Source: Treponema sp. (GTDB taxonomy: Bacteria; Spirochaetota; Spirochaetia; Treponematales; Treponemataceae). From it: a DNA stretch of 46,766 nucleotides. The position numbers were made by a program, and so were the translations under genes. Below the pieces are notes generated by a model. The model did not search any database. It saw only the letters and a program-made list of their open reading frames with translations, and had not been told where the DNA came from. Location: contig JAILHV010000002.1 in assembly GCA_024695625.1 (NCBI GenBank), positions 1-46,766 of the forward strand. Reading direction: 5' to 3'. Positions 43,511 to 46,766 of the stretch are shown here, one piece after another. Each line of letters starts with the position of its first letter. The stretch's first letter is position 1.

Positions 43511-43525
43511 CTTTTAGGGGTGTTT

Positions 43526-43771
43526 ATGATTACAATAAAACCAGTTTCAGATTTGCGAAATTATAACAAAGTTTTGCAGGATGTAGCAGATGAATCTCCA
43601 GTTTTCCTCACAAAAAATGGACGGGGTTGCTATGCAGTAATATCAATAAAAGATTATGAAAAGCTTACTGCTACAAAAACCTTGTTTGCGGAACTAAAAA
43701 AAGGAGAAGATTCAGCAAAAGAAAAGGGGTGGCTTAGCACAAAAGATGTTCGTGCAATGGTAGGGCTTTGA
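43526..43771 (+). CDS. Phd/YefM-family antitoxin
   Basis: MITIKPVSDLRNYNKVLQDVADESPVFLTKNGRGCYAVISIKDYEKL. Confidence 0.88.
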   Translation: MITIKPVSDLRNYNKVLQDVADESPVFLTKNGRGCYAVISIKDYEKLTATKTLFAELKKGEDSAKEKGWLSTKDVRAMVGL

Positions 43772-44085
43772 TGTTTAAAGTAGACGTTTCTCCATAGGCG
43801 GCAGAAGATTTGCTCGAAATAAAAAACTACATCGAAAATGAATTGCTGAATCCAATCGCGGCACACAATACTGTAGAGAAAATTGTAGAAACCTATGAAG
43901 ATTTAGCAAACTATCCAGAAATAGGGATTCCTGTAGAAAGATATGTTTATTTTCCAACAGAGTATAAATTTGTGCTTGCGAATAATTATTCAATTTTTTA
44001 CAGAATAGAAGGGGAATTTGTAAGAGTAATCAGAATAATGTATTCAAGACGAGATTTTGTAAGAATCTTGTTTGGAGAAGATTAA
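43771..44085 (+). pseudogene. ParE/RelE-family toxin with in-frame amber codon at codon 9
   Basis: ATG 43771 overlaps the antitoxin TGA; MFKVDVSP-TAG(43795-43797)-AAEDLLEIKNYIENELLNPIAAHNTVEKIVETYEDLANYPEIG...NYSIFYRIEGEFVRVIRIMYSRRDFVRIL. Confidence 0.8.
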
Positions 44086-44089
44086 AATC

Positions 44090-44156
44090 ACATAACAAGT
44101 AGCTCAAAGCCGCCGGCGCAGTAGGGTCTCGTTGCGGTTTAACTACATAGTTATGT
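44090..44156 (+). other. attC-like recombination site
   Basis: ACATAAC (44090-44096) complementary to GTTATGT (44150-44156); GTAGCTCAAAGCCGC pairs with GCGGTTTAACTAC leaving unpaired bases; 67 bp. Confidence 0.88.
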
Positions 44157-44190
44157 GGACGCCCGCACTGGGGCGCTTAGGAAGAAAAAA

Positions 44191-45375: not shown

Positions 45376-45705
45376 ATCATATAAACGAAATTTAGCAGTA
45401 CCGTTTTTTACACAGAGAGACAATACATATGTTTGGCAACAAATAGATTCTGATACAAATTTAAAAAAGGTCCAAAATATCCAATGGCCTGGCGGACTTG
45501 TAATATAACAAGTCTCTGTATGATTCTTCATTATTGGGGCTTAACAGAAGAAACTCCAAATCAGATGGTAGAAAAAATTTTTGCAAAGAAACAAGAAGGT
45601 GAAGGAGCGAATGCAAAATGGGGCTGGTTATATGAAGCAAATAGTGATTCAGCACTTACGGGGGCTTCACGACTTGAAAATTGGGCAATAGTTTGTAGTT
45701 TATAG
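45368..45705 (+). pseudogene. C39-like peptidase domain gene, frameshifted and truncated
   Basis: Frame A MSESYKRNLAVPFFTQRDNTYVWQQIDSDTNLKKVQNIQWP..., then a shifted frame gives WRTCNITSLCMILHYWGLTEETPNQMVEKIFAKK; ends just before the attC. Confidence 0.6.
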
Positions 45706-45711
45706 AAAATC

Positions 45712-45776
45712 ACATAACAAAGCTTCAAAGCCGACAAACCGGTCAAGCCGGTTGGCGGTTTAAGCAATTGATATGG
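45712..45776 (+). other. attC-like site, terminal, variant right core
   Basis: ACATAAC (45712-45718); GCTTCAAAGCCG pairs with CGGTTTAAGC; inner stem AACCGG/CCGGTT; right core GATATGG instead of GTTATGT. Confidence 0.82.
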
Positions 45777-46042
45777 TGAGCCAAAAGTCAATATGTAAAA
45801 AACAGAAAAGGAACAGTGTCCGGGCTTGTCCGGTAGTGACCACTATGATATTCGTGCATAGGCCGAGGCCCGCTCCAGGTCAATGATCCGCCGTAGAACC
45901 CTTCTGCTATGTTAACAGGAATCAGATTCTGAAAATCAGAAAATGTCCTAAAACTGGTTTCGAAGATGGTTGTTTATGTACTGCAATCCCCGAATCACTT
46001 TGTCCCCTTCCTGATAAATCCTGAAAATACCGAAGCAAAAAT

Positions 46043-46766
46043 TCACTGAATATGATTCGTCATTATTCCCCATGCAAAACATGCAAGCTCCCTTGCGCAT
46101 GCGACAGCCGCCTTGTTGTAGTTCAGTCCCCTAATCTCAAGCTTCCTCATCCTAGACTTTATCCTTAACGCAGCCCTGTCCGCATAGTTTATGATTTCAG
46201 ACTTCATTCCTTCCTGTCTTGCCAGAAGCCTCCTTGACTTCTGACCGTGCGATAAAGCTGTCGCCCTCTTTATCGATTTTGCCGACTCCACAAGAAGATG
46301 CCGCAGGTTCTGATTTCCCTGCTTCGTTATTCCCACGCTGTTTCCGACCGAAAGCCCGCTGTCATGGCGGCCTGGAATGAGTCCCGTGTAGCTTGCGAAT
46401 TCCTTTGCCGACTTAAAGCGGTTAAAGTCTCCTGTTTCCGCTATCAGACTGATTGCCGTAACAGTGTCAATTCCGGAAATGCACTTGAGCTTTTTTACAC
46501 CTTCAGAAATTTCCTTGTCTCCTTCAAGCTCCTTGAGCTTTGCATTCAACTGTTCCAGACGCTGGATTTGACGTGAGACCTCGCTGACATATTCCTCAAA
46601 GCAATACGTCAGGTAATCTGATGCAAAAGTGACAGTCTTAAGCCATGTAAAAAATTTCACTGTCCAATAAGATTCCCTTCCGCCGCCCGGATACGAAATT
46701 CCGTGATAGAGTAAAAATGACAGAAGGTTCTGCTTTGCCTTCTTGCAGCTTTTCAACACGCTGGCA
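46043..46766 (-). mobile_element. IS110/IS1111-type transposase (5' end beyond window)
   Basis: KKLKCISGIDTVTAISLIAETGDFNRFKSAKEFASYTGLIPGRHDSGLSVGNSVGITKQGNQNLRHLLVESA is the transposase_20 domain; frame open to window end. Confidence 0.9.

What the first reader, a model, noticed from the sequence alone, without database searches (positions are those of the whole stretch)
45712..46766. IS110/IS1111-type element beside the terminal attC, with a candidate bridge-RNA region
The transposase (46043 onward, minus) is followed by about 260 bp of non-coding DNA (45783-46042) ending within a few bases of attC 45712-45776, whose right core is altered. Known: an IS1111 subgroup targets attC sites, and IS110-family ends encode a bridge RNA guiding insertion. 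On the minus strand this stretch has structured tracts (GGCGGATC...GAGCGGGCCTCGGCC, GTCACTACCGGACAAGCCCGGAC). Its bridge RNA may be programmed to spirochaete attC.
Basis: partly seen in the sequence, partly recalled or inferred. Interest (0 to 1): 0.7.

Follow-up and report, generated by a model that had tools for sequence, protein, structure and literature searches.

The report
RNA-guided insertion element inside integron attC
A small mobile element in a rumen Treponema sits inside the recombination site (attC) of a gene cassette, and comparison with ten relatives indicates that an RNA made from its own tail picks that site by base pairing, as its proteobacterial counterparts do.

Summary
The minus-strand ORF is the C-terminal part of an IS110/IS1111-type DEDD transposase, cut by the contig end. 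Near-identical complete copies elsewhere give the full element: 1510 bp, 377-aa transposase, ~273-nt downstream non-coding region, 10-bp subterminal inverted repeats set 7 bp and 3 bp from the ends. It is inserted in the attC, not beside it. The attC stops at 45769; the 'altered core' GATATGG is the IS terminus. Twelve distinct right flanks and at least ten left flanks fall at the same attC point in one orientation. The non-coding RNA carries a right-target guide (AACCAGUU), a shorter left-target guide (GUUAACA), and a donor guide (AUAUCAUA) matching the joined IS ends. Across ten related Treponema elements with different targets, all three change with target or junction (permutation p ≤ 2e-4). 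A second lineage (47% identical) fills 12 of 14 attCs that match its guide in one integron, against 1 of 28 that do not. attC-targeting, seekRNA-guided IS1111 elements are known from Proteobacteria, so this is a new member in spirochaetes, notable for natural reprogramming and two attC-targeting lineages. No RNA or transposition was measured.

The parts
45712..45769 (+). attC (R'' side through L') of the terminal cassette, split by the IS; its R' core is displaced to the other end of the element
   Evidence: attC model hit 45769(-) E 4e-17; junction comparison
45770..46766 (-). IS1111-architecture insertion sequence, right (3') 997 bp of an expected 1510 bp; rest lies beyond the contig end
   Evidence: 99% identical to complete copies; second 3' end in own genome at G000:C30:1-139, left end at G000:C263
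45770..45782 (-). IS right terminus: sTIR GGCTCACCAT plus 3-bp extension ATC
   Evidence: matching left end ATACAAT+ATGGTGAGCC in L044
45786..45791 (-). TTGACT, candidate -35 box of the circle-junction promoter (17 bp from TACAAT of the left end once ends are joined)
   Evidence: conserved TTGAC[AT]-17-[TG]ACAAT in ten elements; not tested functionally
45770..46042 (-). non-coding region, template of the presumed seekRNA/bridge RNA
   Evidence: no Rfam match
45844..45851 (-). donor guide ATATCATA, identical to joined IS ends ATATC|ATA
   Evidence: 8/8 in ten elements with three right-end and two left-end variants, p 2e-4
45910..45916 (-). left-target guide GTTAACA (pairs with the bottom strand of ..RTAAC|A)
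   Evidence: column scan p<2e-4; coordinates
45917..45951 (-). hairpin between the two target guides
   Evidence: present in all ten relatives with changing pairs, Stouffer z -7.3
45952..45959 (-). right-target guide AACCAGTT (pairs with the top strand AAYTGSTT); preceded by conserved CATCTTCG
   Evidence: permutation p<5e-5, column scan p<2e-4, elements outside the set
46043..46765 (-). C-terminal 240 aa of the DEDD transposase, with the GLxPxxxxSG motif

Best explanation
An IS1111-architecture insertion sequence whose transposase is guided by an RNA from its 3' non-coding region. The RNA holds, in order, a right-target guide (pairs with the top strand right of the insertion point), a hairpin, a left-target guide (pairs with the bottom strand to the left), and a donor guide identical to the joined IS ends. 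In this lineage the target guides read the two conserved boxes of Treponema attC on either side of AATT|GTTATG, so the element inserts there in one orientation and splits the attC. Shown: ends, insertion point, single orientation, and guide-target and guide-junction covariation. Inferred by analogy with the seekRNA and bridge-RNA work: transcription from the circle-junction promoter, binding to the transposase, strand exchange, and loss of cassette recombination at the occupied attC.
For: 12 distinct right flanks and at least 10 left flanks at the same attC point and orientation; intact joined site on the same contig as copy L044; sTIRs with 7/3 extensions and downstream non-coding region; right-target guide covaries with target in ten elements (p<5e-5; p<2e-4), left-target guide (p<2e-4), donor guide (p 2e-4); matches in elements outside the set: L157, Butyrivibrio, IS4321; guide variant AAGCAGTT found only in two copies, both at GCTT-type attCs; second lineage fills 12/14 guide-matching attCs and 1/28 others in one array, p 1e-7.
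Against: No RNA or transposition data. The window copy is truncated by the contig end. Left-guide matches are short (4-7 nt). The window copy itself pairs 6.5 of 8 with its own attC (one C-C mismatch). G176 (4/7), G160 (5/7) and a third G239 element (5/7) match poorly. The donor half has no folding-energy support. No convincing second (top-strand) donor guide was found.
Confidence: 0.9

Rival explanations
1. The transposase recognises the folded attC hairpin (structure) rather than reading sequence through an RNA.
For: All copies of the window's lineage and 13 of 14 of the second lie in attCs, which fold.
Against: In one array the second lineage fills 12/14 AAACCGC attCs but 1/28 attCs of other letters and similar fold; one copy lies outside attC at AAACAGC, 6 of 7 guide letters; relatives insert in non-attC targets with matching guides.
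Confidence: 0.04
2. The copies spread by cassette duplication and integrase shuffling, not by repeated targeted insertion; the guide matches follow from shared ancestry.
For: Integron cassettes do duplicate and shuffle; some attCs in the G239 array are near-identical.
Against: Twelve different attC bodies carry the window's lineage, in contigs of several genomes with unrelated neighbouring cassettes; relatives with unrelated, non-attC targets show the same guide rule.
Confidence: 0.03
3. The guide matches are chance similarities of short segments.
For: Guides are 5-9 nt, and several related elements share targets beginning AGGG.
Against: Permutation tests with the whole non-coding region searched, a single homologous column, matches in elements outside the set, and the occupancy test.
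Confidence: 0.01

Closest known systems
IS1111-attC group (ISKpn4, ISPst6, ISPa25, ISPa21) of Proteobacteria
   Same: Inserts in one place of attC; RNA from the downstream non-coding region with a segment for each target strand, top-strand segment first (PMC11187229; PMC11616780).
   Different: Here in spirochaetes; transposase 377 aa, against 330-350 aa for IS1111 members in that paper. Exact insertion point could not be compared because the original papers (Tetu and Holmes 2008; Post and Hall 2009) are not held.
IS1111 family prototypes IS4321 / IS5075
   Same: sTIR with 7/3 extensions, downstream non-coding region, right-target guide matching the right flank 8/8 in IS4321.
   Different: About 24% transposase identity over ~295 aa and a long branch in the tree; target is Tn21-type ends (title of Partridge and Hall 2003, cited in PMC11187229).
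IS110 bridge-RNA element IS621
   Same: Target and donor guides in one non-coding RNA; DEDD recombinase (PMC11208160; PDB 8wt6 matched, E 9e-9).
   Different: In the IS110 type the RNA is in the left end and the guide order is reversed (PMC11187229, PMC11208160); here it is in the right end, and sTIRs are long.
Butyrivibrio proteoclasticus plasmid IS110-family element (L192)
   Same: 38% transposase identity; same anchor, right guide 7/8, donor guide 8/8, 16-bp sTIR.
   Different: Different target (right flank AGTTTTTT), not attC.

Membership tests
IS1111 family | Subterminal inverted repeats of ~11-13 bp (range 7-17) with 7-bp left and 3-bp right extensions | tested here: met
   10-bp ATGGTGAGCC/GGCTCACCAT (ATAT-flanked), 7/3; definition from PMC11187229 and PMC11208160
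IS1111 family | Long non-coding region downstream of the transposase gene | tested here: met
   273-275 nt downstream against ~100 bp upstream
IS1111 family | RNA with top-strand complement 5' of bottom-strand match | tested here: met
   right guide at column 159, left guide at column 206; sequence only, RNA not observed
IS1111 family | Transposase related over full length to IS1111 members, 330-350 aa, GL-P----S(t)G motif | tested here: inconclusive
   motif present (GLIPGRHDSG) but 377 aa and ~24% identity to IS4321/IS5075; the tree lacks IS110 prototypes
IS1111-attC group | Specific insertion in integron attC in one orientation | tested here: met
   12 right and at least 10 left flanks; integron integrase in the same genome, 422 bits
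IS1111-attC group | Same insertion point and transposase clade as ISKpn4/ISPst6 | not testable with these tools
   sequences and original papers not held
seekRNA/bridge-RNA guided elements | RNA bound to transposase and required for movement | not testable with these tools
   needs experiment
IS110 family (IS621-like) | Guide RNA upstream of the transposase gene, short sTIR | tested here: not met
   downstream region carries the guides; 10-bp sTIR
Rfam RNA families | Match to a curated family | tested here: not met
   no match in the window at gathering scores, nor in 45700-46100 at E up to 5

The most novel reading that the evidence does not exclude
In Treponema, attC targeting was acquired at least twice within one transposase group, and independently of the proteobacterial IS1111-attC elements, by rewriting a few guide letters; the elements then saturate guide-matching attCs and lock parts of the integron array.
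Probability: 0.45. Interest if true: 0.65.

Novelty: new member of a known kind. Interest (0 to 1): 0.5.

Why it matters
It extends RNA-guided attC-targeting elements to spirochaete integrons and supplies a natural series of related elements in which the right-target guide, the left-target guide and the donor guide all change with their DNA partners, useful for working out the guide rules of the IS1111-type architecture. The G239 array is a natural specificity assay (12 of 14 matching attCs filled, 1 of 28 others). It also suggests a concrete way in which cassette arrays may be frozen.

Tried and rejected
An early eye-match ACATAAACAACC as left guide was dropped because it is not at a position that varies with target; the column scan chose GUUAACA instead. 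A top-strand donor guide was sought: no column stood out (best p 0.009 in one of several windows tried), so none is claimed. Folding energy of the donor half and of the whole RNA was not above shuffles. ISEc45 and ISSfr2 gave weak or no guide match with the ends I guessed. A covariance model and a protein structure prediction were not run because the guide covariation already answered the question.

Full report
What is there. The minus-strand ORF from 46043 is the C-terminal 240 aa of an IS110/IS1111-type transposase cut by the contig end. The host is an uncultured, apparently rumen-associated Treponema: near-identical complete copies lie in other Treponema MAGs (L044/L073, L074, L046/L075, L045/L077, and L076 in an unclassified MAG), some with cattle omasum or sheep rumen in the record title. 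From these the element is 1510 bp: left end ATACAAT then ATGGTGAGCC, a 377-aa DEDD transposase (PF01548 plus PF02371), a non-coding region, then GGCTCACCAT and ATC. The 7-bp and 3-bp outer extensions match the published IS1111 definition (PMC11187229).

Insertion site. In element orientation the target is ..CCACATAAC|AAYTGSTTRWACSG: the attC right core (R', GTTATGTGG in cassette orientation) lies left of the element and the rest of the attC right of it. Twelve distinct right flanks and at least ten distinct complete left flanks of this lineage sit at this point in the same orientation; one further left end (G116) has a doubtful flank. The joined flanks of copy L044 occur intact about 900 bp further on the same contig, with no duplicated bases beyond an ambiguous CA. 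In the window the attC therefore ends at 45769 and GATATGG is IS sequence. From general knowledge of integrons, the insertion point is about one base from the integrase crossover in the R' core.

A second lineage. A relative 47% identical in transposase has 13 full-length copies in a 130-kb cassette array of genome G239 beside an integron integrase (716338-717285, 416 bits), plus one outside. It uses a point 8 bp further into attC..TAACNNNNNNTT|AAACCGC.

Guides. I took ten related elements, most with different insertion sites, and aligned their non-coding regions. Searching the whole non-coding region for the best complement to the first 7 bases of the right flank, own targets beat permuted targets (66 against mean 57.2; none of 20,000 permutations reached it), and in 8 of 10 the best place is directly after a conserved ATCTTxGA. 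In the alignment one column stands alone (62; next 37; permuted maximum mean 36.9). A second column, 3' of a hairpin, matches the left flank (51.5 against permuted maximum mean 32.1, p<2e-4). A third segment equals the joined IS ends in all ten (8/8), following three right-end variants ATATC, ATATT and ATATA and two left-end variants. The order, right guide then left guide, is that reported for IS1111 seekRNAs.

Elements outside the set. Element L157 (G099) pairs 7/7 after the anchor (ATCTTTGATTGGCGCT with flank AGCGCCAA). Butyrivibrio proteoclasticus has the same kind of anchor, right guide 7/8 and donor guide 8/8; IS4321, a bona fide IS1111 element, has right guide 8/8. Within the window's lineage, two copies carry guide AAGCAGUU in place of AACCAGUU, and both sit in attCs with GCTT in place of GGTT. 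Copies with AACCAGUU, including the window's own, are found at both attC types, so one mismatch is tolerated. Exceptions are G176 (4/7, left end lost), G160 (5/7) and a third G239 element (5/7).

Specificity in one genome. In the G239 array the second lineage fills 12 of 14 attCs reading AAACCGC (the guide match; the two empties were found by direct search) and 1 of 28 reading AAACGGT, AAACGGC, GTACCGC or AAAGCGT (Fisher p 1e-7). Further sites of other attC types could not be classified by the script and are not counted. This argues for sequence reading rather than hairpin recognition. For the window's lineage, guide pairing at its 12 flanks (mean 7.2 of 8) exceeds that of attCs in the G239 array (5.5; p 0.003), a weaker test because the background comes from another genome.

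Circle-junction promoter. Joining the ends gives TTGAC[AT], about 17 bp, then TACAAT here or GACAAT in most relatives. This resembles the junction promoter described for IS1111 circles (PMC11187229) but was not tested.

Classification. Architecture is that of the IS1111 family; the transposase is longer (377 aa) and only about 24% identical to IS4321, and the tree lacks IS110 prototypes, so protein-level membership is left open. The window lineage's nearest relatives in the tree (G160, G188; support 98/100) do not target attC, and the second lineage does not group with it, which suggests that attC targeting arose twice; the deeper branches are weakly supported. No paper on such elements in Treponema was found, in a library that lacks most subscription journals. 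No Rfam family matches.

What is not shown. No RNA has been seen, no transposition measured, and the effect on cassette mobility is inference.

Noticed in passing
G160 L148, G188 L137, G200 L134-L136: Related elements (60% identical) are inserted in genes whose reading frame around the junction reads ..GVRFDAYVKDSSRIFNVE|MQKVAND.. (G160) and ..GIRLDVYLKDVDKVIDVE|MQNHKEE.. (G188), resembling the Rpn/PD-(D/E)XK nuclease family (from memory); a conserved motif of a multi-copy gene family seems to be the target.
   Followed up: partly
G239:C1:716000-848400 (L176-L183): An integron array beside intI in which nearly every attC of one sequence class carries an IS (13 copies of 1638-1640 bp); also a third IS of this group next to it near 714-715 kb (L050, right flank AGGAGATCC).
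   Followed up: partly
window 43520-44085: A cassette-like unit with an 83-aa Phd/YefM-like ORF and a 91-aa ParE-like ORF (by eye), followed by an attC at about 44090-44180; looks like a toxin-antitoxin cassette.
   Followed up: no
window 8582, 26841, 43444 (minus-strand ends): Further attC-like hits (E 1e-10, 2e-14, 2e-4) far from any integrase in the window; the integrase of this genome is on contig C91.
   Followed up: no
G176 L142: A 69% identical relative lacks its left end and its right flank does not pair with its right guide (4/7); its left-guide letters GATAAC resemble attC. Possibly a rearranged copy.
   Followed up: no
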